From Aquabacterium lacunae (GTDB taxonomy: Bacteria; Pseudomonadota; Gammaproteobacteria; Burkholderiales; Burkholderiaceae_C), in contig NZ_SIXI01000004.1 in NCBI RefSeq assembly GCF_004310865.1, positions 62,001-126,000 of the forward strand: DNA of 64,000 nt. Reading direction: 5' to 3'. A program made the position numbers and the translations under genes. Below the pieces are notes generated by a model. The model worked only from the letters and a program-made list of their open reading frames with translations, was not told where the DNA came from and ran no database searches. Positions 17,402 to 31,736 of the stretch are shown here, piece by piece (position 1 is the stretch's first letter; every line of letters starts with the position of its first letter).

Positions 17402-18349
17402 TCAGGCACCCAAGGTGCGTGAGGCCATCGCGGCGGCGGCCGAACGGGTTTCCACACCCAGCTTCTGGAAGATGTGTTCCAGGTGCTTGTTGACGGTTCG
17501 GTGGCTCATGCCCAGGATCTCGGCAATGTCCCGGTTTGTTTTGCCTTTGGCCAGCCAGGTCAGCACCTCGGTTTCGCGCGGGGTGAGGGCTGGCAGCGGC
17601 TGGCGGCTGAGCTCGCCGCCCTCACTGGCATGGAAAGGCACGGCGCTGGCCGACTGCAAGCTCAGCAAGACCATGGTCTCACCCAGACCCGCAGCCCCCA
17701 GGTTGCGCGCCACCAGCACCTCGTCGGCAGGCCCCGGCGTGCCCAGACCGTGGCGCACCTCGTGCCCGGTCGGGCTGTTGACCAGGGATTGCATCCACTC
17801 GAATGGAAACGGCGCCTCAGCGGGCAGGTCAGGGAAGGCTTGCCGCAGCCACAGCTCGGCCTGTGGCGAGCGCCACGCCACGCGCAGGCGCGCATCGAGC
17901 AACAGCACCCCATGCCCACCGACATCGACGGCGTCGCGGGCCAGGCGCACCACACGGGCATTGCGCAAGTGGGTGCCCAGGCGGGCCAGCACCTCGTCCA
18001 CGCGCAAGGGCTTGACCACATAGTCCACCCCGCCGGACTCGAACCCGGCCACGATGTCGGCCGTCTCGGACAGGCCCGTCATGAAGATGACGGGCACGTG
18101 GGCCCAGGCTCCGCGGGCCTTGATGCGCCGACAAGTCTCGAAGCCATCCAGCCCGGGCATCACGGCATCCAGCAAGATGGCATCGGGCACCACCAGCTCC
18201 AGCCGTTCCAGGGCCTGCGCGCCATCCTGGGCCACCATCACGGTGTAGCCCTCGCTGGCCAGCGCCGTGCAAAGCATGCGCAGGGCATCGGGCGCGTCGT
18301 CCACGACCAGCACCGTGCCCGCATGCCGGTCAATCGCGGGAGACATCAT
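17402..18349 (-). CDS. LuxR-family response regulator of the amide/urea cluster
   Basis: A 315-residue two-component regulator. A receiver domain (residues about 10-125, phospho-acceptor Asp61 in LLDAVMPGLDG, conserved Lys in VKPLR) is followed by a PAS-like middle section (about 140-230). A C-terminal LuxR/FixJ helix-turn-helix (LTPRETEVLTWLAKGKTNRD, recognition helix near HRTVNKHLEH) closes the protein. The start ATGATG at 18349 lies inside the 3' end of the hybrid kinase gene (20-bp overlap, with GAGGA upstream), so the two are translationally coupled partners. I infer that it activates urtA and amiE through the TACGT-N6-ACGTA sites. Confidence 0.92.
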   Translation of the reverse strand: MMSPAIDRHAGTVLVVDDAPDALRMLCTALASEGYTVMVAQDGAQALERLELVVPDAILLDAVMPGLDGFETCRRIKARGAWAHVPVIFMTGLSETADIVAGFESGGVDYVVKPLRVDEVLARLGTHLRNARVVRLARDAVDVGGHGVLLLDARLRVAWRSPQAELWLRQAFPDLPAEAPFPFEWMQSLVNSPTGHEVRHGLGTPGPADEVLVARNLGAAGLGETMVLLSLQSASAVPFHASEGGELSRQPLPALTPRETEVLTWLAKGKTNRDIAEILGMSHRTVNKHLEHIFQKLGVETRSAAAAMASRTLGA

Positions 18350-21300
18350 CGGGGTCCTCTTGGGGGTTGGCATGGGCCAGCGCCTGCTGCAACCCATCGA
18401 AATCCAGGTCATGGGCCAGCCGGCGCCAGTGCGCCAGATGCTCGCGCCAGGCCATGGGACAGGCTGCTTCGTCTTCCAGGCAACGCTGCAGTCCACTGAG
18501 CTCGCCTCGGCGCGCCATCTGGTGCACGTGGCGCCACCAACGCAGTGCACCCGGCTCGACAGCATCGGCGTGTGCAGCCACAGGTGGCGGGGTGCGCACG
18601 GGCAGGGTCAGTGCGGCATCGACCAGCGGGCGTCGGGGCTCACCCCGGATCCACACCAGCTTCAGGTGCCGGGCCAGCACGTCCAGCAGTTCCGACTCGA
18701 TCACGGGCTTGGCCACAAAGGCCTGGCAATTGGCGGCCGTCAGGTTCTCGGGCCTGTTGTCGAACACGTTGGCCGACACCATGATGATGGGGACCTCGCT
18801 CCAACCTGCCGCTCGGGCTTCTCGCGCGGTGCGCCAGCCGTCGAGGTCGTCCATGCTCACGTCCAGCAACAACGCATCGGGGCGAACCTCCGGGAGCCGC
18901 TCCAGGCATTCCTGCCCACTGGCCGCCTCCCGCACCACAAAGCCCAAGGGCATCAGCAATCCCGCCAACAGGTGCCGGTGCATGGGCTGGTCGTCGACCA
19001 CCAGCAGGGTCTTGCGGGGGCCCTCATAACCGGTCACGGGGCGCAGACGCAACTGGCGGCTGGCATCGTCGCGCGTGCCCGAAGCCCCGCTCGGTGCACT
19101 GGCCGACGCAGCGCCCAGGGCCGGGCCCATGGGCGCTGCGGGTGCCGCGATCTCACGCAGGTACAGGCGCGCACTGAAGGTGCTGCCGCCACCCTGCACA
19201 CTGTGCACACTGAGTTCGCCGCCCATCAGTTCGGTGAGCAGGTGGGTGATGGTCAGGCCCAGACCCGTGCCAGGTACCGCGGCACGACGCCCGGCGCTGC
19301 CCCGCTCGAAGGGCAGAAAGATGCGTTCAAGGTCTTGCGGTGCGATGCCGATGCCGGTGTCCACCACCTCGAAGCGCAGCACCTCGCGGCGCGCATCGAC
19401 CCGCAGCGTCACCTGGCCGTGGTCGGTGAACCGCACGGCATTGCTCAGCAGGTTCAGCAGGATCTGGCGCAGGCGGCGCGCATCGGCCTGAACCCAGCGT
19501 GGCACGCGCCCCAGGGTGGCCAGTTCAAAACGCAGGCCTTTCGCTTCGGCCTGGGGTTGCACCATGTGCACCACATCGTCCAGGAACTCGTGCAAGGGCA
19601 GCGGGGCCGGGTCCAGACGCAAACGACCTGCCTCGATGCGGGCCAGGTCCAGCAGGCCATCGATCAGGTCGAGCAGGTGTTCGCCGCTGCGCTCGATGGT
19701 GCGCAAGGCGCTGTGCCGGGTGGTCTCGCTCAAGCCACCCTTCAGCAAGATCTGGGTGTAGCCCAGGATGCTGTTGAGCGGGGTGCGCAGCTCGTGCGTC
19801 ATGCCAGCCACATAGCGGGTCTTGGCCTGGTTGGCCGAATCGGCCTGGTCCTTGGCCTGCTGCAGGGCCAGGTCGGTGCGGCGGTGGGCGTCGATTTCCT
19901 GCTGCAGCAACTGGTTGTGCCGGCTGGATTCATCCTGCGCCATGCGCCGGCTCTCAGAAGCCAGCACGATCCACCACGCACACACGGCGGCCACCATCAG
20001 CAGCAGGGCATACACCTTCACAAACGGGCTGGCCGGCAGCAGGTGCTCGGCCACATGGCCCTGGCGCTCGGCACTGAGCGCCTGCAGAACCCCTTCCTGG
20101 TAGTAGACCACCCCCAGCACCAAGGCGAGCAGCAAGGCAATCGACAGGAACACCACGAGGTAGTGGCCCACGCGCACATTCACCAGGTCGGCCCATCGCG
20201 GCGGCAGGACCGCGGTCAGCCCGCCACTGACCTGCTCGGCTGCCCTCGAACGGCTCTTGCACCGGTCATGGCAGCGCGACTCCAATGTGCAGCACAGCGA
20301 ACAGATGGGGGCGTCATAGGCCGGGCAGCCCGCCATGTCATCGACCTCGAAGGCGTTCTCGCACACACAGCAGCGCAGGGTCTTGCCGGGTGCGCCCATG
20401 GCCTCGGGCGGTCTGGCCAGGTAGTAGCGGCCTTGGGTGTACCAGGCCAGCAGCGGCGACAGCGCCATGGCAATGAACAGGGCGATCAAGGGCGACCAGG
20501 GCACCACCGCAGCGCCCATGAAGCCCGAATGGCAGACCACGGCCACCACCGCGCCGGCCAGCGTGGCACACAGCCCCACCGGGTTCAGGTCGTACAGGTA
20601 GGCGCGCTTGAACTCGATGCCGGCGGGCGACCAGCCCAAGGGTTTGTTGATGACAAGATCGGCCACCAGCGCGCCCACCCAGGCAATGGCCACGTTGCTG
20701 TAAAGGCCCAGCACGCTTTCCAGCGCGCTGAAAACGCCCAACGTCATGAGCAGCACGGCCATCAGCACGTTGAAGACGAGCCACACCACGCGGCCCGGGT
20801 GGCTGTGCGTCAGCCTTGCGAAAAAGTTCGACCACGCGAGAGAGCCCGCATAGGCATTGGTCACATTGATCTTGACCTGCGACACGATCACGAACACCAC
20901 CGTGGCCGCCAGCGCCCAGCCCGACGAAGGAAACACCTCTTCGAAGCCCGCCAGGTACATCTGCGTGGGCTCGATGGCCTTGTCCACGGGCACCTCGTGC
21001 TGCAGGGCCAGGAAGGCCAGGAAGGCGCCGGCCATCATCTTGAGCATGCCGGGAATGATCCAGCCGGGGCCCGCCACCAGCACGGCCGTCCACCACTTCA
21101 CACGGTTCTCGCGGGTCTTTTCGGGCAGGAAACGCAGGAAGTCGACCTGCTCGCCCACCTGCACCACCAGCGAAAAGGCCACCGTGGCGGCCAGCCCGAA
21201 GGCCCCCATGTCGAAGTCGGCATGCCCGGTGCTGCGCCCGGCCAGCGACGTGAACTCGCTGTATGCCTCGGGGCGGTGCCAGGCCACGGCCACGAAAGGG

Positions 21301-21887
21301 CACACCCACAAGGCCAGCCACACCGGCTGCGTCCACGCCTGCAGACGCGAGATCAAGGTCACGCCATACATCACCATCGGGATGATCACCAGCGACGACA
21401 CCACATAACACACAGGCAAGGACCAATCCGTGACCATCTGGATGGCCAGCGCCATGATGGCCGCCTCCAGCGCAAAGAAGATGAAGGTGAAGCTGGCGTA
21501 GATGAGCGAGGTGATGGTGCTGCCCAGGTAACCGAAGCCCGCGCCACGGGTGAGCAGGTCCATGTCGACGCCATAGCGGGCGGCGTACACGCTGATGGGC
21601 AGGGCCGTCAGGAAGATCACCACCCCGACCAGCACGATGGCCCACAGCGCATTGGTGAAGCCGTAGTTCAGCGCAATGGCACCCCCGATGGCCTCCAGGG
21701 CCAGGAAAGACACCGAGCCAAACGCCGTGTTGGCCACACGCAGCTCGCTCCACTTGCGGAACGAGCGCGGCGTGTAGCGCAGCGCGTAGTCCTCCATGGT
21801 CTCGTTGGCGACCCAGGAGTTGTACTCACGGCGGATGCGAAAGATCTGTTGCCGGACCGGGGACACGACGCGCTCAGGTTGCTGCAC
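18330..21887 (-). CDS. NCS1 permease-histidine kinase hybrid sensor
   Basis: An 1185-residue membrane sensor. Residues about 30-480 are a complete NCS1-type (purine/allantoin/hydantoin) permease with LRVANTAFGSVSFLALEAIG and AARYGVDMDLLTRGAGFGY. A module with nine Cys (506, 507, 509, 521, 529, 532, 533, 539, 543) follows, then two more membrane helices near 575-597 and 620-640. Next come a HisKA domain with His698 in MTHELRTPLNS, an HATPase domain (NLLSNAVRF, DTGIGIAP, GTGLGLTI) and a receiver with Asp1009. A C-terminal helical extension of about 110 residues shows no clear Hpt signature. The start is a GTG at 21887 with no strong ribosome site. It is transcribed divergently from urtA and overlaps its response regulator. 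The likely ligand is urea or a short amide (inferred from context). Confidence 0.93.
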   Translation of the reverse strand: MQQPERVVSPVRQQIFRIRREYNSWVANETMEDYALRYTPRSFRKWSELRVANTAFGSVSFLALEAIGGAIALNYGFTNALWAIVLVGVVIFLTALPISVYAARYGVDMDLLTRGAGFGYLGSTITSLIYASFTFIFFALEAAIMALAIQMVTDWSLPVCYVVSSLVIIPMVMYGVTLISRLQAWTQPVWLALWVCPFVAVAWHRPEAYSEFTSLAGRSTGHADFDMGAFGLAATVAFSLVVQVGEQVDFLRFLPEKTRENRVKWWTAVLVAGPGWIIPGMLKMMAGAFLAFLALQHEVPVDKAIEPTQMYLAGFEEVFPSSGWALAATVVFVIVSQVKINVTNAYAGSLAWSNFFARLTHSHPGRVVWLVFNVLMAVLLMTLGVFSALESVLGLYSNVAIAWVGALVADLVINKPLGWSPAGIEFKRAYLYDLNPVGLCATLAGAVVAVVCHSGFMGAAVVPWSPLIALFIAMALSPLLAWYTQGRYYLARPPEAMGAPGKTLRCCVCENAFEVDDMAGCPAYDAPICSLCCTLESRCHDRCKSRSRAAEQVSGGLTAVLPPRWADLVNVRVGHYLVVFLSIALLLALVLGVVYYQEGVLQALSAERQGHVAEHLLPASPFVKVYALLLMVAAVCAWWIVLASESRRMAQDESSRHNQLLQQEIDAHRRTDLALQQAKDQADSANQAKTRYVAGMTHELRTPLNSILGYTQILLKGGLSETTRHSALRTIERSGEHLLDLIDGLLDLARIEAGRLRLDPAPLPLHEFLDDVVHMVQPQAEAKGLRFELATLGRVPRWVQADARRLRQILLNLLSNAVRFTDHGQVTLRVDARREVLRFEVVDTGIGIAPQDLERIFLPFERGSAGRRAAVPGTGLGLTITHLLTELMGGELSVHSVQGGGSTFSARLYLREIAAPAAPMGPALGAASASAPSGASGTRDDASRQLRLRPVTGYEGPRKTLLVVDDQPMHRHLLAGLLMPLGFVVREAASGQECLERLPEVRPDALLLDVSMDDLDGWRTAREARAAGWSEVPIIMVSANVFDNRPENLTAANCQAFVAKPVIESELLDVLARHLKLVWIRGEPRRPLVDAALTLPVRTPPPVAAHADAVEPGALRWWRHVHQMARRGELSGLQRCLEDEAACPMAWREHLAHWRRLAHDLDFDGLQQALAHANPQEDPDDVSRD

Positions 21888-21938: not shown

Positions 21939-21960
21939 TACGTTAATTGACGTATTCAGG
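21939..21960 (+). promoter_or_regulatory. Operator and -35 of the urtA promoter
   Basis: TACGTTAATTGACGTATT contains inverted arms TACGT and ACGTA six bases apart. The following TTCAGG (21955-21960) looks like a -35, then 17 bp, then TAAGGT (21978-21983) as a poor -10. The same 18-bp pattern with the same geometry precedes amiE at 30600. This places the palindrome centre near -43, a normal position for a LuxR-type activator. The sequence is seen directly; the binding protein is inferred to be the adjacent response regulator. Confidence 0.75.
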
Positions 21961-22084
21961 GAAACCCTGGCCCTGCCTAAGGTTGCACCCAAGGCCGCGC
22001 CAGGCTCGCTGTTTGAAAAGGCATGCACCGGGACGCGGCACAGATTCCCCGTCTGCAACCCATTTTTGTGCAAGGAGCCTTTCC

Positions 22085-23365
22085 ATGTCGAACCGCGAAG
22101 ATGATCTGTCCCCGAACCGTCGCCGCCTGCTGCAAGGCATGGGCGCCCTGCCCCTGGCCGGCATGGCTGGCACCAGCGGGCTGGGCATGCTGGCCACCTC
22201 GGCCAACGCCCAGTCCTTCCCGACCGCCAAGGTGAACACCACCAAGTTGGCCGTGACCGACACCGAGGTCATCGTCGGTCAACTGCACTCGGCCACCGGC
22301 ACCATGGCCATTTCGGAAACTGGCTCGATCCAGGCCGAACAGCTGGCCATCGACCAGATCAACGCCATGGGCGGCATCCTGGGCCGCAAGATCAAGGTGA
22401 TCAAGGAAGACGGCGCGTCTGACTGGCCCACCTTCGCCGAAAAGTCGAAGAAGCTGCTGGTCAATGACCGCGTGGCCTGCGTGTTCGGCTGCTGGACCTC
22501 CGCCTCGCGCAAGGCCGTGCTGCCGGTGTTCGAAAAGGAAAACGGCCTGCTGTACTACCCCACCTTCTACGAAGGCCTGGAGCAGTCGAAGAACGTGATC
22601 TACACCGGCCAGGAAGCCACGCAGCAGATCATCTACGGGCTGGACTGGGGCTCGAAAGAGAAGAAGGCCAAAACCTTCTTCCTCGTGGGCTCGGACTACA
22701 TCTGGCCGCGCACCTCCATGAAGATCGCACGCAAGCACATCGAGTCGGTGGGCAAGCTGGGCAGCGTGGTGGGTGAAGAGTACTACCCGCTGGGCCACAC
22801 CAACTTCAACTCGCTGATCAACAAGATCAAGGTGGCCAAGCCCGACTGCATCTTCGCCGCCGTGGTGGGTGGCTCGAACGTGGCCTTCTACAAGCAGCTC
22901 AAGGCCGCCGGCATCACGGGTGCCAAGCAGTTCCTGCTGACCCTGTCGGTGACCGAGGACGAAATGCTGGGCGTGGGCGGCGAAAACTTCGCTGGCTTCT
23001 ACAGCTCGATGAAGTACTTCCAGACGCTGGACAACCCCAACAACAAGGCCTTCGTGGCCGCCTTCAAGAAAGCCTACGGGCCCAAGGCCGTGATCGGCGA
23101 CGTGACCCAGGCCGGCTACCTGGGCCCCTGGTTGTGGAAGGCTGCGGTCGAGAAGGCTGGCAGCTTCGACGTGGACAAGGTGGTGGCCGCCTCGCCCGGC
23201 ATCGAACTCAAGACCGCGCCTGAAGGCTATGTGAAGGTTCACCAGAACCACCACCTGTGGAGCAAGTCGCGGATCGCCCAGGGCCTGCCCGACGGCACCT
23301 TCAAGGTGGTGGCCGAGTCGAAAGACCTGATCGAGCCCAACCCCTTCCCCAAGGGCTATCAGTGA
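22085..23365 (+). CDS. urtA: Urea/short-chain amide ABC transporter, binding protein UrtA
   Basis: A 426-residue periplasmic binding protein of the branched-chain amino acid/urea/amide type. The N-terminus carries a twin-arginine signal (NRRRLLQ at residues 11-17, then a hydrophobic stretch ending SANAQ). The family core is present: VGQLHSATGTMAISETG, FGCWTSASRKAVLPVFE and LLYYPTFYEGLE. I chose the ATG at 22085, which has AAGGAG upstream. It is the first gene of the urtABCDE-fmdAB operon, behind a leader of about 95 nt, and is separated from urtB by a hairpin that may lower expression of the downstream genes. The related FmdD protein binds short amides and urea. Confidence 0.95.
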   Translation: MSNREDDLSPNRRRLLQGMGALPLAGMAGTSGLGMLATSANAQSFPTAKVNTTKLAVTDTEVIVGQLHSATGTMAISETGSIQAEQLAIDQINAMGGILGRKIKVIKEDGASDWPTFAEKSKKLLVNDRVACVFGCWTSASRKAVLPVFEKENGLLYYPTFYEGLEQSKNVIYTGQEATQQIIYGLDWGSKEKKAKTFFLVGSDYIWPRTSMKIARKHIESVGKLGSVVGEEYYPLGHTNFNSLINKIKVAKPDCIFAAVVGGSNVAFYKQLKAAGITGAKQFLLTLSVTEDEMLGVGGENFAGFYSSMKYFQTLDNPNNKAFVAAFKKAYGPKAVIGDVTQAGYLGPWLWKAAVEKAGSFDVDKVVAASPGIELKTAPEGYVKVHQNHHLWSKSRIAQGLPDGTFKVVAESKDLIEPNPFPKGYQ

Positions 23366-23412
23366 CCGTCCAGAGAGCGCGCGGGTGGCCTTGAGGTCAT
23401 CTGCTTCCTGCA

Positions 23413-23447
23413 CCGGCGCGGCTCCCGCCGCGTCGGGCAGGTTTTTT
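23413..23447 (+). terminator. Hairpin plus T-run between urtA and urtB
   Basis: CCGGCGCGGC (23413-23422) pairs with GCCGCGTCGG (23427-23436), ten pairs with one G-T, around a TCCC loop. Six T's at 23442-23447 follow after five bases. It has the form of a leaky terminator or 3'-end stabiliser, which would give more urtA mRNA than urtBCDE mRNA, as usual for ABC binding proteins. Confidence 0.6.
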
Positions 23448-23482
23448 CTCCAGCCATCTTTTGACGACGCGGGGTGCCACCC

Positions 23483-24397
23483 ATGACCTTTTCAGAAATG
23501 CTCAACATCGGCCTGATGCAGGGCTTCGCAGGCCTGAGCCTGTTTTCCGTGCTGCTGCTCATGGGCCTGGGCCTGGCCGTGATCTTCGGGCAGATGGGCG
23601 TGATCAACATGGCCCATGGCGAGTTCATGACCATCGGCGCCTACACCGTGTACCTGGGCTCCACGCTGGCCGAAAAGTACGCGCCCGGCTTCGTGCAGAT
23701 GTACTTCCCGGTGGCCATCGTGGCGGCCTTCCTGCTGGCCTTTGGCGCCGGCTGGTTGACCGAGTGGGCCTTGATCCGGCACCTGTACAAACGCCCACTT
23801 GACACGCTGCTGGCCACCTGGGGCCTGAGCCTGGGCCTGCAGCAGGTGTTCCGCTCCACCTTCGGCCCCAAGGAAGTGAGTCCCACCCTGCCCGACTGGC
23901 TGATGGGCTCGTGGGCCCCCAGCGAAGGCCTGGACATTCCCATCAACGGCCTGTTCGTGATGGCCCTGACCCTGACCGTGACCGGCCTGCTGATGCTGGC
24001 CCTCTACAAGGCTCGCTGGGGTTTGCGTGTGCGGGCCACCGTGAGCAACCGCGTCATGGCCAACGCCATCGGCATCAACACGAAACAGACCGACCGGCTG
24101 ACCTTTGCCATCGGCTGCGGCATTGCGGGTGTGGCCGGTGCGGCCTTCACCACCATCGGCTCCACCGGCCCCACCAGTGGCTCGCTCTACATCGTCGATT
24201 CCTTCCTGGTGGTCACCTTCGGTGGCGCCGGCAGCCTGCTGGGCACGGTGGTCTCGGCCTTCGGCATCGCACAGACCCAATCGGTCAGCGAGTTCTTCAT
24301 GACCGGCTCGAACGCCAAGGTGCTGACCCTGCTGCTGGTGGTGTCCATCCTGATGCTGCGCCCGCAAGGTCTGTTCGCCTCGAAGGTGCGCCGCTGA
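23483..24397 (+). CDS. urtB: Urea/amide ABC transporter permease UrtB
   Basis: A 304-residue LivH-type inner-membrane permease with about eight hydrophobic segments. Family landmarks are GLAVIFGQMGVINMAHGEFM near residues 30-50, RATVSNRVMANAIGINTKQTDRLTF, the loop that contacts the ATPase, and FLVVTFGGAGSLLGT. I used the ATG at 23483 (MTFSEMLN), which has GGGG upstream; a GTG nine bases earlier is possible. It pairs with UrtC to form the channel. It lacks the long periplasmic N-terminal domain of some UrtB proteins. Confidence 0.95.
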   Translation: MTFSEMLNIGLMQGFAGLSLFSVLLLMGLGLAVIFGQMGVINMAHGEFMTIGAYTVYLGSTLAEKYAPGFVQMYFPVAIVAAFLLAFGAGWLTEWALIRHLYKRPLDTLLATWGLSLGLQQVFRSTFGPKEVSPTLPDWLMGSWAPSEGLDIPINGLFVMALTLTVTGLLMLALYKARWGLRVRATVSNRVMANAIGINTKQTDRLTFAIGCGIAGVAGAAFTTIGSTGPTSGSLYIVDSFLVVTFGGAGSLLGTVVSAFGIAQTQSVSEFFMTGSNAKVLTLLLVVSILMLRPQGLFASKVRR

Positions 24398-24453
24398 CAC
24401 CTGCGCACTGCCTCATCGAACCCCGATCTCAAGCCGTCTACAGGAGCGTTCAC

Positions 24454-25665
24454 ATGAATCCGATGCAAGCCTGGATCGCCAAGCAGAAGCTCGGCAGCCT
24501 CTTGCTGCTGTCCATCCTGCTGCTGGTGGTCTTCCCCCTGGTGCTGGAGCCCTTCCGGCTCAACATGGTGGGCAAGTACCTGACCTACGCCTTCGTGGCC
24601 CTGGGCCTGGTCATGCTGTGGGGCCACGCCGGCATCCTCAGCCTGGGCCAAGGCGTGTTCTTCGGCCTGGGTGGCTACATGATGGCCATGTTCCTCAAGC
24701 TGGAGGCCTCTGACCCGGTCAGCACCAAGATCCAGTCCACCCCGGGCATCCCGGACTTCATGGACTGGAACCAGCTCACCGAGCTGCCGATGTGGTGGGT
24801 GCCCTTCAAGAGCCTGCCCTTTGCGCTGGCTGCGGTGCTGGTGGTGCCGGTGGTGCTGGCCTTCATCATCAGCTTCGCGATGTTCAAGCGCCGTGTGGGT
24901 GGGGTGTACTTCGCCATCATCACGCAGGCCGTAGCCCTGATCCTGACGGTGCTGATCATTGGCCAGCAGGGCTACACCGGCGGGGTCAACGGCATCACCG
25001 ACCTCAAGACCCTGCTGGGCTGGGACATCCGCACCGACAGCGCGCGCCTGGTGCTGTACTACGTGTGCTGCGGCCTGCTGATCGCCAGCGTGCTGCTGTG
25101 CCGCTGGGTGCAGGCCTCCAAGCTGGGCACCTTGCTGCTGGCCATGCGCGACAAGGAAGACCGCGTGCGCTTCTCAGGCTATGACGTGGCCATGTTCAAG
25201 GTCTTCGCCTTCTGTCTGGCCGCCATGCTGTCGGCCATCGGTGGCGCTCTGTTCACTCTGCAGGTGGGCTTCATGTCGCCCAGCTTCGTGGGCATCGTGC
25301 CTTCGATCGAAATGGTCATCTTTGCCGCGGTGGGTGGGCGCATGAGCCTGGTGGGCAGCATCTACGGCGCCCTGCTGGTGAACTACGGCAAGACCTACTT
25401 CTCTGAAAGCGCGCCCGACCTGTGGCTGTTCCTGATGGCCGCCCTGTTCATCGGCGTGACCATGGCCTTCCCCAACGGCCTGGCCGGTCTGGTCGAAGAA
25501 AAGCTCAAGCCCTGGTGGGCCAAGCGCCAGGCCGATCGCAAGCTGCAGGCCGAACGCATCAAAGCTGCCCACGAGGCCTACCCCCACCCGCTGCCCCCGG
25601 GCAAGCCGAGCACAGCCAGCAACGGCCTGGGCCCCATCAACGGTCTGAGCGGCCACCAGGCCTGA
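24454..25665 (+). CDS. urtC: Urea/amide ABC transporter permease UrtC
   Basis: A 403-residue LivM-type permease. Membrane helices begin at LLLLSILLLVVFPLVL. WGHAGILSLGQGVFFGLGGY is the UrtC/LivM signature, and MRDKEDRVRFSGYDVAMFK is the coupling loop for the ATPases. An insertion around residues 88-115 (STPGIPDFMDWNQL) is typical of UrtC. The C-terminal tail is hydrophilic with a Lys/Arg-rich stretch and a Pro/Gly end. AGGAG precedes the ATG at 24454. urtD starts 20 bp after the stop. Confidence 0.95.
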   Translation: MNPMQAWIAKQKLGSLLLLSILLLVVFPLVLEPFRLNMVGKYLTYAFVALGLVMLWGHAGILSLGQGVFFGLGGYMMAMFLKLEASDPVSTKIQSTPGIPDFMDWNQLTELPMWWVPFKSLPFALAAVLVVPVVLAFIISFAMFKRRVGGVYFAIITQAVALILTVLIIGQQGYTGGVNGITDLKTLLGWDIRTDSARLVLYYVCCGLLIASVLLCRWVQASKLGTLLLAMRDKEDRVRFSGYDVAMFKVFAFCLAAMLSAIGGALFTLQVGFMSPSFVGIVPSIEMVIFAAVGGRMSLVGSIYGALLVNYGKTYFSESAPDLWLFLMAALFIGVTMAFPNGLAGLVEEKLKPWWAKRQADRKLQAERIKAAHEAYPHPLPPGKPSTASNGLGPINGLSGHQA

Positions 25666-25685
25666 ACCCTGCCAGGAGCTGAGTC

Positions 25686-26429
<744 letters not shown>

Positions 26430-26453
26430 CCCCACCACCCCAAGGAGCACGAC

Positions 26454-27143
26454 ATGTTGCAAGTCAATGACCTGTTCGTCAGCTATGGCCAGAGCGAAGC
26501 CCTGCATGGCATCAGCTTTGAAGCCCATAAAAACGAAACCGTGGCCATCATGGGCCGCAACGGCATGGGCAAGACCACGCTGTTCAAGAGCCTGATGGGC
26601 GTGCTGCCCACCAAGTCGGGCGAGATCTGTGTGGCCGGGCAGAGCGTGGTGAAAGACGAGAGCTTTCAGCGCGTGAAGAAGGGCATTGCCTACGTGCCCC
26701 AGGGCCGCATGATCTTCCCCACCCTCACGGTGGAAGAGAACATCCAGACCGGCCTGGAAAACAGCAAGCACAAGCGCATTCCCGACGACATCTATGCGCT
26801 GTTCCCGGTGCTGTTCGACATGAAGCACCGCAAGGGCGGCAACCTGTCGGGTGGCCAGCAACAGCAGCTGGCCATTGCGCGCGCGCTGGTCACCAACCCC
26901 AAGGTGCTGCTGCTGGACGAGCCCACCGAGGGCATCCAGCCTTCGATCATCAAGGACATCGCCAAGGCGCTCAACGAGATCCGCAAGCTGCGCGAAATCA
27001 CCATCGTGGTGAGCGAGCAGGTGCTGAGCTTTGCCATGGACGTGGCCGACCGGCTCTTCGTGATCGAAGGCGGCCGCCTGGTGCACGAGACCACCCGCGC
27101 CGACACCGATGCCGACCGCATCAAAGCCTATTTGTCTGTTTGA
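26454..27143 (+). CDS. urtE: Urea/amide ABC transporter ATPase UrtE
   Basis: A 229-residue LivF-type ATPase. Walker A is GRNGMGKTT, the signature is NLSGGQQQQLAIARAL, Walker B is LLLDEPTEGIQPSI and the switch region is ITIVVSEQ. The Asn-Gly-Met-Gly form of Walker A and the GIQPSII motif are typical of UrtE. AAGGAG precedes the ATG. It completes the five-gene transporter and is followed after 33 bp by the formamidase gene in the same operon. Confidence 0.95.
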   Translation: MLQVNDLFVSYGQSEALHGISFEAHKNETVAIMGRNGMGKTTLFKSLMGVLPTKSGEICVAGQSVVKDESFQRVKKGIAYVPQGRMIFPTLTVEENIQTGLENSKHKRIPDDIYALFPVLFDMKHRKGGNLSGGQQQQLAIARALVTNPKVLLLDEPTEGIQPSIIKDIAKALNEIRKLREITIVVSEQVLSFAMDVADRLFVIEGGRLVHETTRADTDADRIKAYLSV

Positions 27144-27176
27144 TCCCCTCTGTCTTTGATACCGAAGGAGCACTCC

Positions 27177-28409
27177 ATGGCTGACACCCTGATCAAGGTC
27201 GACCTCACCCAGTCGCCCACCCTCAACGAGAACATCCACAACCGCTGGCACCCCGACATCCCGATGGCCTGCTGGGTGAACCCTGGCGACGAGTTCATCC
27301 TCGAGACCTTCGACTGGACGGGTGGCTTCATCAAGAACAACGACAGCGCCGACGACGTGCGCGACATCGACCTCAGCACGGTGCACTACCTGAGCGGCCC
27401 GGTGGGCGTGAAGGGCGCCGAGCCCGGCGACCTGCTGGTGGTCGACCTGCTCGACATCGGCGCCAAGCAGGACAGCCTGTGGGGCTTCAACGGCTTTTTC
27501 AGCAAGCAGAACGGTGGCGGCTTCCTGACCGAGCACTTCCCGTTGGCCCAGAAGTCGATCTGGGACATCCACGGCATGTTCACCAAGAGCCGCCACGTGC
27601 CGGGCGTGAGCTACGCCGGCCTGATCCACCCGGGCCTGATCGGCTGCCTGCCCGACCACAAAATGCTCGAAGCCTGGAACACGCGCGAGCAGGAACTGAT
27701 CGACAGCAACCCCGGCGTGACCGGCCTGGCCAACCCGCCCTTCGCCGGCACCGCCCACATGGGCAAGCTCACGGGCGAAGCCAAAGAGAAAGCCGCCGCC
27801 ACCGCCGCGCGCACCGTGCCCCCGCGTGAACACGGCGGCAACTGCGACATCAAAGACCTGTCGCGCGGCTCCAAGGTGTATTTCCCCGTGTATGTCGATG
27901 GCGCTGGCCTGAGTGTGGGCGACCTGCACTTCAGCCAAGGCGATGGCGAGATCACCTTCTGCGGCGCCATCGAAATGGCCGGTTGGGTGCACATGAAGGT
28001 CACGCTGATCAAGGGCGGCATGGCCAAGTACGGCATCAAGAACCCCATCTTCAAGCCCAGCCCCATCAAGCCGGTCTACAACGACTACCTGATCTTCGAA
28101 GGCATCTCGGTGGACGAGCAAGGCAAGCAGCTCTACCTCGATGTGAACGTGGCCTACCGCCAAGCTTGCCTCAACGCCATCGAATACCTCAAGAAGTTCG
28201 GCTACAGCGGCGCCCAGGCCTATTCCATTTTGGGCACGGCGCCGGTGCAGGGCCACATCAGCGGCGTGGTCGACGTGCCCAATGCCTGCGCCACCTTGTG
28301 GCTGCCCACAGAGATCTTCGACTTCGACATCAACCCCACGGCGGCGGGCCCGGTCACGCACCTCGATGGCAGCGTGCAGATGCCGATCTCGCCCGACATC
28401 GTGAAGTGA
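27177..28409 (+). CDS. fmdA: Formamidase (acetamidase/formamidase family)
   Basis: A 410-residue FmdA_AmdA-family amidohydrolase that converts formamide to formate and ammonia. The sequence follows Methylophilus FmdA closely in character: NRWHPDIPMACWVNPGDEF, LSGPVGVKGAEPGDLLVVD, TKSRHVPGVSYAGLIHPGL and GGNCDIKDLSRGSKVYFPV. It belongs to this family and not to the nitrilase-fold AmiF group. I chose the ATG at 27177 because AAGGAG lies eight bases upstream; the frame opens at 27156 without one. Co-transcription with urtABCDE means that imported amide can be hydrolysed at once. It is cytoplasmic. Confidence 0.95.
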   Translation: MADTLIKVDLTQSPTLNENIHNRWHPDIPMACWVNPGDEFILETFDWTGGFIKNNDSADDVRDIDLSTVHYLSGPVGVKGAEPGDLLVVDLLDIGAKQDSLWGFNGFFSKQNGGGFLTEHFPLAQKSIWDIHGMFTKSRHVPGVSYAGLIHPGLIGCLPDHKMLEAWNTREQELIDSNPGVTGLANPPFAGTAHMGKLTGEAKEKAAATAARTVPPREHGGNCDIKDLSRGSKVYFPVYVDGAGLSVGDLHFSQGDGEITFCGAIEMAGWVHMKVTLIKGGMAKYGIKNPIFKPSPIKPVYNDYLIFEGISVDEQGKQLYLDVNVAYRQACLNAIEYLKKFGYSGAQAYSILGTAPVQGHISGVVDVPNACATLWLPTEIFDFDINPTAAGPVTHLDGSVQMPISPDIVK

Positions 28410-28425
28410 TCCAGGAGCGCCACGC

Positions 28426-28779
28426 ATGCCCACCTACGACTACGCCTGTCCTGCGTGCGGGGGCTTCGACGCCTTCCGCAGCCTCAGCCAGCGCAACGAA
28501 CCGGCGCCCTGCCCTGACTGCGGCACGGCGTCACCGCGGGTCATCGTCAGCGCCCCACGGTTGGCATGCGTGAGTGCGGAAACACGCTTCGCCATGGACA
28601 CCAATGAACGCGCGCGGCACGAGCCACGCTCGTCGAAAGCGCTGGACGGCAGCTACAGCCGCCTCAAGCACCCTGCCGGGTGCGGCTGTTGCTCGACCTC
28701 GCGCAAGGCCACCACGGTGCGTGCCCCCGACGGGGCCAAGAGCTTTCCCAGCAAACGCCCGTGGATGATCAGCCACTGA
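28426..28779 (+). CDS. fmdB: FmdB-family zinc-ribbon protein
   Basis: A 117-residue protein with the FmdB start MPTYDYACPACGGFDAFRSL and a second pair, CPDCG, so that four Cys make a small zinc ribbon at residues 8-36. The rest is basic, with GCGCCSTSRK near residue 88 and no recognised fold. FmdB was described as a regulatory protein of the formamidase operon in Methylophilus. Its mechanism is unclear and many FmdB-like proteins sit by unrelated genes. It lies 16 bp after fmdA and is the last gene of the operon. Confidence 0.9.
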   Translation: MPTYDYACPACGGFDAFRSLSQRNEPAPCPDCGTASPRVIVSAPRLACVSAETRFAMDTNERARHEPRSSKALDGSYSRLKHPAGCGCCSTSRKATTVRAPDGAKSFPSKRPWMISH

Positions 28780-28786
28780 CACGGTG

Positions 28787-28810
28787 CACGCGAGGGGGCA
28801 CGCGAGGGGG
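28787..28810. repeat. Perfect tandem 12-bp duplication
   Basis: CACGCGAGGGGG occurs twice head-to-tail (28787-28798 and 28799-28810) in the 79-bp gap between fmdB and the antiporter gene. It is probably a slippage product. It could affect the promoter of the antiporter gene, whose leader begins here. Confidence 0.85.
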
Positions 28811-28858
28811 ACGCTCGGGTTAACCTAGCGGCTCCCATACCACCCCTCGCACACCGGC

Positions 28859-30562
28859 ATGCCCCATGACGTCAGCCTGATCTCCACCCTGTCGGCCGCC
28901 TTTGCCCTGGCACTGCTCCTGGGCTTTGCGGCCACGCGCTTGCGGCTGCCGCCACTGGTGGGCTACTTGCTGGCGGGGGTCATGATTGGCCCGGCCACGC
29001 CGGGCTTTGTGGCCGATGTGAAGCTCTCGGGGCAGCTGGCCGAGATCGGCGTGATGCTGCTGATGTTTGGGGTGGGCCTGCACTTTTCAGTGGCCGACCT
29101 GATGGCGGTTCGACGCATCGCCGTGCCGGGGGCCATCGTCCAGATCGCGGTGGCCACGGCCCTGGGCATGGTGGCGGCTCACACATGGGAATGGTCGCTG
29201 GGCGCCTCTGTGGTGTTGGGTCTGAGCCTGTCGGTGGCCAGCACCGTCGTCCTGCTCAAGGCCCTCGAAGCACGCGGCGCCGTCGAAACCGGCAATGGGC
29301 GCATTGCCGTGGGCTGGCTGGTGGTCGAAGACCTGGTCATGGTGCTGGTGCTGGTGCTGCTGCCAGTGTTCTCCGGGCTGCTCCTGCACACCGATGGCAG
29401 CGCCGGCACGTCGGCCACCGACCCATGGTGGGTACCTGTGGTCTCGACCCTGGCCAAGGTCTTTGCCTTCATCGCCACCATGCTGATCGTGGGCAAAAGG
29501 CTGCTGCCCAAGGTGCTGTGGTGGGTGGCGCGTTCAGGCTCGCGCGAGTTGTTCACCCTCAGCGTGGTGGCCATCGCGGTGGGGGTGGCCTTTGGCGCGG
29601 CCAAACTCTTCGATGTGTCCTTTGCCCTGGGCGCATTCTTCGCCGGCATGATGATGCAGGAGTCCGAGTTCAGCCACCGCGCCGCCGAAGAGTCTCTGCC
29701 CCTGCGCGATGCGTTCTCGGTGTTGTTCTTCGTGTCGGTGGGCATGCTGTTCGACCCGGCCGTGCTGTGGCAGGCCCCGGGCAAACTGGCAGTGGCCGTG
29801 GCCATTGTGATGCTGGGCAAAACGCTCGCCGCCATGGCCCTGGTGCTGCTGATGCGTTACCCGCTCAACACGGCATTGACGGTGGGGGTGAGCCTGGCCC
29901 AGATCGGCGAGTTTTCCTTCATCCTCGCCAGCCTGGGCGTGGGCCTGGGCCTGCTCCACCCGGAAGGCCAGAACCTGATCCTGGCCACGGCCTTGGTGTC
30001 GATTGCCGCGAACTCGGCCCTCTTTGCCGCGATAGGGCCGGTGCTGAACTGGGCGCGGCAACACTCGGCGCTGGCACGCCGGCTCGAAGCCCGCGACGAC
30101 CCCTTGGCCGAACTGCCCAGCTCCGTGGACCAGAAGCACCTGCACGGCCAGGTCGTGATCGTGGGCCACGACCGGCTGGGGCAGGACATCACCGAGCAAC
30201 TGCTGGCCCAGCACCTCTCGGTGGTGGTGGCCGACGAGCGCCGCGAAGTGGTCGAAGCTTTGCGCGAACGCCAGATCCCGGCCGTGACCGGCGACCTGAA
30301 CGATCCGGCCACCTTGATCCAGGCCCACATCGCGAGGGCCTCGTTACTGGTCATCACCCGACACGACACCCTGCTCACACGCCACCTGGTGGGCATCGCG
30401 CGCGAACTGAATCCCGGCATCCAGGTAGTGGTGCATGCCGCCAACGCCGAAGAAGCCCAGCTGCTGCAAGACAGCCTGAACATCACCGCGTGCTGGCCCG
30501 ATCAGGTCATGGCGTCCGGGTTGTCACAACAGGTGCTCGCCCGGATCCAGCGGGCGCCCTGA
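28859..30562 (+). CDS. YbaL-type monovalent cation:proton antiporter with RCK domain
   Basis: A 567-residue CPA2-family antiporter. The N-terminal 390 residues are membrane helices with LPPLVGYLLAGVMIGPATPGF, LMFGVGLHF and LSVASTVVLLKALE. A cytoplasmic TrkA-N/RCK domain (residues about 425-540) begins HGQVVIVGHDRLGQDITEQL and has a GxDxxG nucleotide loop. The N-terminal sequence matches YbaL more than KefB/KefC. I chose the ATG at 28859; a strong ribosome site is not visible. It sits between fmdB and amiE, so a link with pH or K+/NH4+ balance during ammonia release is possible but inferred. Confidence 0.88.
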   Translation: MPHDVSLISTLSAAFALALLLGFAATRLRLPPLVGYLLAGVMIGPATPGFVADVKLSGQLAEIGVMLLMFGVGLHFSVADLMAVRRIAVPGAIVQIAVATALGMVAAHTWEWSLGASVVLGLSLSVASTVVLLKALEARGAVETGNGRIAVGWLVVEDLVMVLVLVLLPVFSGLLLHTDGSAGTSATDPWWVPVVSTLAKVFAFIATMLIVGKRLLPKVLWWVARSGSRELFTLSVVAIAVGVAFGAAKLFDVSFALGAFFAGMMMQESEFSHRAAEESLPLRDAFSVLFFVSVGMLFDPAVLWQAPGKLAVAVAIVMLGKTLAAMALVLLMRYPLNTALTVGVSLAQIGEFSFILASLGVGLGLLHPEGQNLILATALVSIAANSALFAAIGPVLNWARQHSALARRLEARDDPLAELPSSVDQKHLHGQVVIVGHDRLGQDITEQLLAQHLSVVVADERREVVEALRERQIPAVTGDLNDPATLIQAHIARASLLVITRHDTLLTRHLVGIARELNPGIQVVVHAANAEEAQLLQDSLNITACWPDQVMASGLSQQVLARIQRAP

Positions 30563-30599
30563 CCGCGGGGAGCGCGGCGCCACATCGGCGCGCGCGGCG

Positions 30600-30621
30600 T
30601 ACGTCAAAGAACGTATTGGCC
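30600..30621 (+). promoter_or_regulatory. Operator and -35 of the amiE promoter
   Basis: TACGTCAAAGAACGTATT matches the urtA operator at 14 of 18 positions and keeps both arms (TACGT, ACGTA) and the trailing TT. TTGGCC (30616-30621) serves as a -35, followed after 17 bp by CAGACT (30639-30644) as a weak -10. The geometry is the same as at urtA. The leader to the amiE ATG would be about 45 nt. Confidence 0.75.
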
Positions 30622-30695
30622 AAGCCATGGCGGGCTTTCAGACTCGGTCACCGTGACGCGCTCATCGCGTCTCACCTTTGACAAGGAGCCCCGCC

Positions 30696-31736
30696 ATGCT
30701 TCACGGTGACATTTCCAGCAGCAGCGACACCGTCGGTGTCGCCGTGGTCAACTACAAGATGCCGCGCCTGCACACCACGGCCGAGGTGATTGCAAACGCG
30801 CACAAGATCCGCCAGATGGTCGAAGGCATGAAGCTGGGCCTGCCCGGCCTCGACCTGGTCATCTTCCCGGAGTACAGCACCCACGGGATCATGTACGACC
30901 CGGCCGAAATGATGGACACCGCCGTGGACATCCCGGGCGATGTGACCGAAGTGTTCGCACAGGCCTGCCGCAATGCCAAGGTCTGGGGCGTGTTCTCCCT
31001 GACCGGCGAGCGGCACGAAGAGCACCCGCACAAGGTGCCCTACAACACCCTGATCCTGATGAACGACCAGGGCGAGATTGTTCAGAAGTACCGCAAGATC
31101 GTGCCCTGGACGCCCATCGAAGGCTGGTACCCGGGCGACAAGACCTATGTGTCGGATGGCCCCAAGGGCCTGAAGATCAGCCTGATCATCTGCGACGACG
31201 GCAACTACCCCGAGATCTGGCGCGACTGCGCCATGAAGGGGGCCGAACTCATCGTGCGCTGCCAGGGCTACATGTACCCAGCCAAGGACCAGCAGGTGAT
31301 GATGGCCAAGGCGATGGCCTGGGCCAACAACTGCTACGTGGCGGTGGCCAATGCCGCAGGCTTCGACGGGGTGTACAGCTACTTCGGCCACAGCGCCATC
31401 ATCGGCTTTGACGGCCGCACGCTGGGCGAATGCGGTGAAGAGGAGTACGGCATCCAGTACGCCCAGCTCAGCAAACGCCTGATCCGAGATGCGCGCAGCA
31501 CCGGGCAATCACAGAACCACCTGTTCAAGCTGCTGCACCGCGGCTACACCGGCAAGATCAATTCGGGCGAAGGCGACAAGGGGGTGGCCGACTGCCCCTA
31601 CGACTTCTACCGCGAATGGGTGGCCGACCCGGCCGCCACGCAGGCCAAGGTGGAGGCCATCACGCGCAGCACCGTGGGCACGGCCGAATGCCCGATCGAA
31701 GGCATCCCGAACGATGCGCGCCTGAAGTACGAATGA
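30696..31736 (+). CDS. amiE: Aliphatic amidase
   Basis: A 346-residue nitrilase-superfamily amidase that hydrolyses short aliphatic amides (acetamide, propionamide) to the acid and ammonia. The catalytic triad Glu59 (FPEYS), Lys134 (YRKIV) and Cys166 ([12 protein letters not shown]) is intact and numbered as in Pseudomonas AmiE, which has the same length; the start [19 protein letters not shown] corresponds too. Long stretches around residues 160-240 look almost unchanged from that enzyme. I chose the ATG at 30696 with AAGGAG upstream. No AmiC/AmiR/AmiB/AmiS genes surround it; instead it carries the operator shared with urtA. Confidence 0.97.

What the first reader, a model, noticed from the sequence alone, without database searches (positions are those of the whole stretch)
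21939..30621. One operator, TACGT-N6-ACGTATT, at both urtA and amiE promoters
Seen directly: 21939-21956 and 30600-30617 agree at 14 of 18 positions, with identical arms and trailing TT. In both, that TT starts a -35-like hexamer, 17 bp follow, and the -10 is poor. Elsewhere I noticed no copy between genes. Two promoters 8.7 kb apart with the same geometry and only these two nitrogen operons point to one dedicated activator. The LuxR-type regulator coded at 17402-18349 is the best candidate. This would define a small amide/urea regulon.
Basis: partly seen in the sequence, partly recalled or inferred. Interest (0 to 1): 0.8.

Follow-up and report, generated by a model that had tools for sequence, protein, structure and literature searches.

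The report
Shared amide-gene operator of two-component regulator
Two near-identical DNA switches, in front of an amide-uptake operon and of an amide-splitting enzyme gene, are very probably the binding sites of the neighbouring two-component regulator, and a sister regulator beside the urea-splitting genes seems to use a slightly changed version of the same switch.

Summary
TACGT-N6-ACGTA occurs exactly twice in the 3.9-Mb genome, at the two reported promoters. It lies between sensor kinase and urtA in 76 of 81 loci with that arrangement (30 of 30 in the genus, 46 of 51 outside); 59 permuted arms match none. In the genus it precedes 20 of 31 amiE genes exactly, 4 more with one mismatch, 7 not. 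TAnnnT sits 24 bases past the site in 52 of 76, placing the operator at -51 to -36, an activator position.

The LuxR-type regulator at 17402-18349 is the likely binder: urtA genes with the kinase beside them have the site (3 of 4), those without do not (0 of 10), and recognition-helix changes track operator changes (only two independent pairs).

Correction: this looks like a short-chain amide regulon. The urease-linked urt cluster has a paralogous kinase/regulator and its own operator, TACGCC-N4-GGCGTA, once in this genome. It works like CrbS/CrbR, with a transporter-like sensor domain that Pfam does not name. Binding and induction are untested.

The parts
21939..21954 (.). Operator 1, TACGTTAATTGACGTA, between the kinase gene and urtA
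   Evidence: exact pattern in 76 of 81 kinase-urtA gaps
21955..21983 (+). Predicted urtA promoter core: -35-like TTCAGG, 17 bp, -10 TAAGGT; operator would lie at -51 to -36
   Evidence: TAnnnT at offset 24 in 52 of 76 loci
30600..30615 (.). Operator 2, TACGTCAAAGAACGTA, before amiE
   Evidence: before 20 of 31 amiE genes of the genus exactly, 4 more with one mismatch
30616..30644 (+). Predicted amiE promoter core: TTGGCC, 17 bp, CAGACT
   Evidence: xAnnnT at offset 24 in 28 of 32 amiE sites with at most one mismatch
17402..18349 (-). LuxR/NarL-type response regulator, receiver 13-124, GerE helix-turn-helix 254-309; predicted binder of both operators
   Evidence: Pfam; helix/operator covariation
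18330..21887 (-). Hybrid sensor kinase: transporter-like membrane domain (about residues 1-490), eight conserved cysteines (506-543), HisKA, HATPase_c, receiver
   Evidence: Pfam; alignment A1; profile comparison
22085..23365 (+). urtA-like substrate-binding protein; probable amide carrier
   Evidence: TIGR03407 519.1 bits, cut-off 492.75
23474..27143 (+). urtB, urtC, urtD, urtE of the ABC transporter
   Evidence: ORFs; UrtD equivalog TIGR03411; B, C and E named from order and sequence, not scanned
27177..28409 (+). fmdA, formamidase
   Evidence: NF045496 746.5 bits, cut-off 500
28426..28779 (+). fmdB, zinc-ribbon protein
   Evidence: TIGR02605 and NF053663 over cut-off
30696..31736 (+). amiE, aliphatic amidase
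   Evidence: NF009802 705.4 bits, cut-off 427

Best explanation
The two palindromes are operators of the LuxR-type response regulator at 17402-18349, partner of the hybrid, transporter-like sensor kinase at 18330-21887. When the kinase senses short-chain amides (or the need for them), phosphate passes to the regulator, which dimerises, binds TACGT-N6-ACGTA with one recognition helix per arm, and recruits sigma-70 RNA polymerase from -51 to -36, making up for a poor -35. This switches on amide uptake and hydrolysis (urtABCDE-fmdAB) and the aliphatic amidase AmiE together. Shown by sequence: the sites, their conservation, the promoter geometry, the link to kinase and regulator, and covariation with the recognition helix. 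Inferred: phosphotransfer, binding, activation, and amides as the signal.
For: Exactly two copies in the genome, both here. 76 of 81 kinase-urtA gaps carry it; other spacer lengths from 0 to 12 give 3 matches in all and 59 permuted arms give 0 each. Of the 20 exact amiE sites in the genus, 9 lie on another contig than urtA and 5 at 16-32 kb from it (my reading). In three genomes where urtB and urtC lie apart (L043, L047, L084) another operator with TAnnnT at offset 24 precedes urtC. Class level: site in 3 of 4 urtA genes with a divergent kinase, 0 of 10 without one within about 1.5 kb (Fisher p 0.011). The 8 of 42 genus genomes without this kinase/regulator have no such site before urt or ami genes. 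Recognition-helix residue after T-V: N, S or D with T in both arms in 72 loci; K, H or T with a C in at least one arm in 14 of 14; D with a purine at position 6 in 6 of 6 half-sites.
Against: No binding, phosphotransfer or expression data. On the tree the covariation rests on two independent pairs (both in the expected direction, sign test p 0.5), so the Fisher p of 5e-10 is inflated by kinship. Five of 81 gaps lack the exact site (L230, L244, L246, L251, L283); one class-level urtA with the kinase (L328) has only a two-mismatch site. Thirteen loci with N or S in the helix have a C in at least one arm of the site nearest urtA; 7 of the 13 have a second site with T in both arms, 6 do not; two more loci (L246, L251) have other bases there. 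Seven amiE genes of 78-83% identity (L106-L112) have no site within two mismatches although their genomes have the system. The -10 hexamers are weak. Whether the ten class-level genomes hold the kinase elsewhere was not tested.
Confidence: 0.86

Rival explanations
1. The sites belong to another regulator (for example a general nitrogen-control protein) that acts on both promoters, and the neighbouring LuxR-type regulator controls something else.
For: Binding has not been shown; general nitrogen control of amide genes is common (recalled). A 49%-identical paralogue of the regulator exists in the same genome.
Against: A general regulator would be expected to have many sites; there are two. The site follows presence of this kinase/regulator. 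The paralogue's cluster has its own, different operator. Helix/operator covariation.
Confidence: 0.07
2. The regulator binds these sites but represses the promoters until the signal removes it.
For: The operator touches the -35 region, where a bound protein could block polymerase.
Against: -51 to -36 with a poor -35 and a conserved -10 is a classic activator position (recalled), and close to that reported for the CrbR motif, -52 to -36 (passages of PMC5715377).
Confidence: 0.07
3. The signal and transported compound is urea; this is simply a urea regulon.
For: UrtA passes the curated urea model (519.1 over 492.75 bits); [quoted passage not shown]
Against: The operon carries formamidase and its partner promoter an aliphatic amidase; a urease-linked urt cluster elsewhere in the genome has its own kinase, regulator and operator. 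PMC3098086 (passages) argues that a urt-like transporter beside fmdA and amiE carries some other amide.
Confidence: 0.2
4. Chance resemblance of two palindromes.
For: With two mismatches allowed, the window has no more matches than shuffles.
Confidence: 0.005

Closest known systems
CrbS/CrbR (SLC5/STAC hybrid kinase with LuxR-family activator of acetate-use genes; PMC5715377, PMC9100948, passages seen)
   Same: Transporter-like membrane domain fused to a hybrid kinase, separate LuxR-family activator, inverted repeat ending at -36 before a sigma-70 promoter, small metabolic regulon
   Different: Membrane domain has no SSF (SLC5) match in Pfam and aligns better with NCS1 carriers; a conserved eight-cysteine block follows it; operator sequence and target genes differ
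Methylophilus fmdCABDEF formamidase cluster (review PMC10781810, passages seen)
   Same: Formamidase, FmdB and an amide/urea ABC transporter; in four relatives here a porin gene bears the same site
   Different: Regulation there is ascribed to a putative positive regulator encoded in the cluster; here a two-component pair and a defined operator are proposed
AmiC/AmiR control of amiE (PMC13209695, passages seen)
   Same: Amide-dependent control of an aliphatic amidase
   Different: AmiR is described as an RNA-binding antiterminator held by AmiC; here a DNA-binding response regulator is proposed
NarL/FixJ-type response regulators (Pfam Response_reg plus GerE)
   Same: Domain layout; spaced palindromic sites are usual for the family (recalled)
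   Different: Long linker between receiver and helix-turn-helix in this genome; the solved structures listed match one domain or the other, not the whole protein (best 60 of 184 seen)

Membership tests
NarL/FixJ (LuxR-type) response regulators | Receiver domain followed by GerE helix-turn-helix | tested here: met
   Response_reg E 1.3e-26, GerE E 4.4e-20
NarL/FixJ (LuxR-type) response regulators | Binds a palindromic DNA site as a dimer | not testable with these tools
   Conserved palindrome and helix/operator covariation only
SLC5/STAC two-component systems (CrbS/R, CbrA/B) | SLC5 (SSF) transporter domain | tested here: not met
   No SSF match among the families listed for 47 members at E up to 1; profile alignment to SSF 17% probability, to NCS1 75%
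SLC5/STAC two-component systems (CrbS/R, CbrA/B) | STAC domain between transporter and kinase | not tested
   No STAC model was compared as such; the stretch holds eight conserved cysteines
SLC5/STAC two-component systems (CrbS/R, CbrA/B) | Hybrid kinase with C-terminal receiver and LuxR-family partner (as in CrbS/R) | tested here: met
NCS1 (cytosine-purine permease) carriers | Pfam PF02133 match of the membrane domain | tested here: inconclusive
   No direct match (PF02133 finds nothing in this genome); remote profile match over 361 columns, probability 75%, from only five NCS1 proteins; the NCS1-SSF control pair itself gives 45%
Urea ABC transporter (UrtA) | Score over the curated cut-off of TIGR03407 | tested here: met
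   519.1 over 492.75; the urease-linked paralogue of relative G062 scores 592.8
Urea ABC transporter (UrtA) | Carries urea | not testable with these tools
   Gene context points to amides
AmiC/AmiR antitermination | AmiR-type RNA-binding regulator controlling amiE | not tested
   No search for it was run

The most novel reading that the evidence does not exclude
A widespread family of two-component systems with an undescribed transporter-like, cysteine-bearing sensor exists as paralogous amide and urea branches. In the lineage where both branches live in one cell, the urea branch has moved its operator from TACGT to TACGC arms, with matching recognition-helix changes (N to K or H), so that two nearly identical circuits do not cross-activate. 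Nature thus provides a ready series of regulator/operator pairs for studying how duplicated regulators become insulated.
Probability: 0.45. Interest if true: 0.72.

Novelty: new variant of a known kind. Interest (0 to 1): 0.58.

Why it matters
It proposes a regulator, operator and regulon for amide-use genes in many Burkholderiales and in Rhodobacteraceae, suggests that many genes annotated as urea transporters sit in amide regulons, and offers a paired amide/urea system in which operator specificity can be swapped and measured.

Tried and rejected
Structure prediction of the sensor domain was not available. A profile of the sensor's first 670 residues found no solved structure at E up to 1. 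A one-mismatch scan of this genome with the degenerate form TACGTYRNNYRACGTA gave the two known sites and one more (C61:37144, TACGTCGTGCAACGCA), fewer than the backward control (3 against 11), so no further target is claimed. The eight genus-wide sites in L067, L072, L073, L074, L077, L089, L090 and L092 have none of my query genes directly behind them and are taken as background (their own genes were not identified). That the urease cluster shares the same operator was rejected for this genome: it has TACGCC-N4-GGCGTA. Nine literature searches listed nothing that I recognised as this kinase/regulator or operator; I saw listings only (of up to 20 papers a search), and the library holds open-licence papers. 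Passages only were seen of PMC10781810, PMC5715377, PMC3098086, PMC9100948, PMC13022988 and PMC13209695.

Rows dropped before counts: L226 and L227 were not in the set; L237, L247, L249, L266, L269, L272 and L285 were taken out (with L226 and L227; also L068) as duplicates of genomes already held, judged from contig lengths and gene layout. One search also leaves out loci whose helix did not fit its search expression (for example L169).

On checking against the calls I lowered two odds slightly: main explanation 0.87 to 0.86 (only 7 of 13 mixed-arm loci have a second T-armed site, not most of them), novel case 0.5 to 0.45 (C arms also occur where only the urea-type kinase was seen).
Full report
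Observation. The exact pattern TACGT-N6-ACGTA occurs twice in the 3,896,784-base genome, at these places only.

Surroundings. Between the sites run urtABCDE, fmdA (formamidase, 746.5 bits over a cut-off of 500) and fmdB, then a YbaL-like cation transporter gene (under that model's own cut-off); amiE (aliphatic amidase) follows the second site. Divergent from urtA lie a hybrid histidine kinase (18330-21887) and, overlapping it by 20 bases, a LuxR-type response regulator (17402-18349). The kinase's first 490 residues or so look like a membrane carrier. The window's own copy (670 residues) has no Pfam match at E up to 1; among 47 relatives only scattered hits appear (best 5.5e-5, at most 7 members for any family, none a carrier family), and no solved structure matches by sequence. 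A profile comparison gives 75% probability to NCS1 carriers over 361 columns and 17% to SSF carriers; the NCS1-SSF control pair gives 45%. This is suggestive only, as the NCS1 side had five proteins.

Conservation in the genus (42 genomes; sorting and counts mine, from the calls named). 34 genomes have the amide-type kinase or regulator, counting G010 and G012 with a more distant kinase and G009 and G015 whose loci are cut by contig ends. In the 32 that can be judged, 31 have the exact site before urtA and one (G012) a one-mismatch site. The 31 amiE genes of 78% identity or more split into 20 with the exact site, 4 with one mismatch (G009, G011, G012, G026) and 7 without (G004, G014, G016, G022, G025, G034, G063), the last all of 78-83% identity. 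Of the 20, 6 lie within about 11 kb of the urtA site, 5 at 16-32 kb and 9 on another contig. G022, G025 and G015 have the site before an AmiE-like paralogue, about 55% identical where it aligns. G009, G011, G024 and G026 have it about 94-109 bases before a porin gene next to recQ; two of the four were scanned and match Porin_4, a third matches a porin model below its cut-off. In G003, G004 and G012 urtB and urtC lie 0.8 to 4.8 kb apart and the site reappears before urtC; in G003 a gene on the opposite strand lies between them. So 61 of 69 sites fall into these classes. The eight genomes without the amide-type system (G002, G006, G018, G030, G031, G032, G035, G036) have no exact site, except one each in G002 and G031 away from such genes.

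Conservation beyond. The kinase's membrane domain was found in 65 of 399 genomes of the order, 44 of 159 genera, and in named genomes including Pseudorhodoferax, Polaromonas, Bordetella sp., Achromobacter, Alkanindiges, Rhodovulum, Roseobacter and Roseovarius (80 loci kept of 194). Taking the loci with urtA divergent from the kinase, 81 distinct gaps, 76 hold the exact site: 30 of 30 in the genus, 46 of 51 outside, including 10 of 11 of the group with Rhodovulum and Roseobacter. None of 59 permuted arms matches any gap, and spacers of 0-12 other than 6 give 3 matches in all. The five without are L230, L244, L246, L251 and L283; L230, L246 and L251 have near matches with one changed arm, and none of TACG-N8-CGTA form was found in the other two. 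In L228, L229 and L242 urtA and amiE are divergent and share a single site. Of 57 distinct amiE upstream stretches examined in and outside the genus, 25 have the exact site, 7 one mismatch and 25 neither. Of those 25, 7 are the genus genes named above, and the 18 outside the genus all lie just behind fmdB or urtE on the same strand (gaps of 13 to 468 bases; my reading), so they may share the urt promoter.

Control without the kinase. In 369 genomes of the class, 14 others carried a close urtA. Of the four with the kinase beside it, three have the exact site and one (L328) only a two-mismatch site; of the ten without it within about 1.5 kb, none has the exact site, though two have two-mismatch matches (Fisher p 0.011). 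Whether those ten hold the kinase elsewhere was not tested. The three order-level genomes with urt-fmd upstream of a kinase on the same strand (L163-L165) have only a two-mismatch match before urtA, and a fourth such locus (L206) none within three.

Promoter geometry. Past the site, TAnnnT occurs at offset 24 in 52 of 76 loci and at any other offset up to 39 at most once; before amiE the looser xAnnnT occurs at offset 24 in 28 of 32, next best 4. If that is the -10, the 16-bp operator spans -51 to -36. The CrbR motif is reported at -52 to -36 (passages of PMC5715377).

The sister system. The same genome has a second kinase/regulator pair (kinase 61% identical in the membrane domain, regulator 49%) beside another urt set and a urease accessory gene, ureG (333.9 bits over 204.2); in relative G062 the same cluster holds urease alpha. 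TACGCC-N4-GGCGTA occurs once in this genome and 33 times in 31 of the 42 genus genomes. 32 genomes have the second, 42-48% identical urtA; 28 of them have this operator within about 300 bases before it. The four others are G008 and G012, which show only one kinase of this type; G010, with the variant TACGCCACCTTGCGTA; and G022, where urtA and operator lie at contig ends (my comparison of coordinates). Five of the 33 operators are not beside a detected urtA (G018, G022, G029, G031, G061). Outside the family, urease-type loci have TACGT-like or mixed arms in most cases seen (L173, L197, L198, L200, L202, L203, L255, L268), but L278 and L279 have C arms. Against a simple insulation story, C arms also occur where only the urea-type kinase was seen (G364, L176; and genus genomes G018, G030, G035, G036), and in G245 and G391, which have both kinases, the urea-type operator was not in the stretch fetched.

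Who binds. Of 113 loci with both a readable regulator helix and urtA, 101 have a TACG-N8-CGTA site within 700 bases before urtA. With N, S or D after T-V the arms are T on both sides in 72 and hold a C in 13; with K, H or T they hold a C in all 14 (11 K, 2 H, 1 T); two loci (L246, L251) have other bases. With T arms, D has a purine at position 6 in 6 of 6 half-sites, N or S in 1 of 138. Of the 13 exceptions 7 have a second site with T in both arms. On a quick tree built without the helix residues, only two independent pairs separate K/H from the rest; both agree with the arms, which cannot reach significance.

Mechanism. I conclude that the regulator binds these operators as a dimer and activates both promoters when its transporter-like kinase is stimulated, most likely by short-chain amides. 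Presence, conservation, geometry and association are shown; binding, phosphotransfer, activation and the signal are inferred. PMC3098086 (passages) already argued that such a urt-like transporter beside fmdA and amiE carries some other amide rather than urea; PMC13209695 (passages) suggests formamide uptake for such a cluster in Pseudomonas.

Comparison. It works like CrbS/CrbR but fails the SLC5 test and so is not filed there. Nine searches of an open-licence library listed nothing that I recognised as this regulator or operator; subscription journals are mostly not covered. The genus is probably that of an Aquabacterium record: the contig of G008 has the same length, 388,486 bases, as the named record behind L227; this is an inference.

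Noticed in passing
window 18330-21887 (kinase residues 506-543): Eight conserved cysteines between the carrier-like domain and the kinase: 506, 509, 521, 529, 532 and 533 invariant in 47 aligned relatives, 539 and 543 in at least 90%, as in a metal-binding block.
   Followed up: partly
window 17402-18349; L033, L034, L057, L058: The regulator has a long linker here and in G008, G015, G022 and G025; in the other genus orthologues receiver and helix-turn-helix lie much closer together.
   Followed up: no
window 27177-28409; L037, L039, L041, L043, L045: fmdA is 96-98% identical to the window's in these five loci and 82-88% in other genus loci, while the urt genes of the five are 82-95% identical, which may mean exchange of fmdA between species.
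   Followed up: no
L043 7178-7864: A gene on the opposite strand, PEP-CTERM-like by its C-terminus (my reading), sits between urtB and urtC, with a fresh operator and TAnnnT before urtC behind it.
   Followed up: partly
L062, L087, L091, L093: The same operator before a porin gene beside recQ in four relatives; possibly an amide porin.
   Followed up: partly
L066 4752-5885; also L063, L094: The AmiE-like paralogue behind the operator in G025 lacks the CDDGNYPE stretch that the window's AmiE has, so it may not be an active amidase (by eye).
   Followed up: partly
window 28859-30562: A YbaL-like cation/proton antiporter gene lies between fmdB and the amiE promoter; role in amide use unknown.
   Followed up: no
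L168, L169, L170, L171: Relatives with D in the recognition helix have TACGTGAATSTACGTA, a third operator type.
   Followed up: partly
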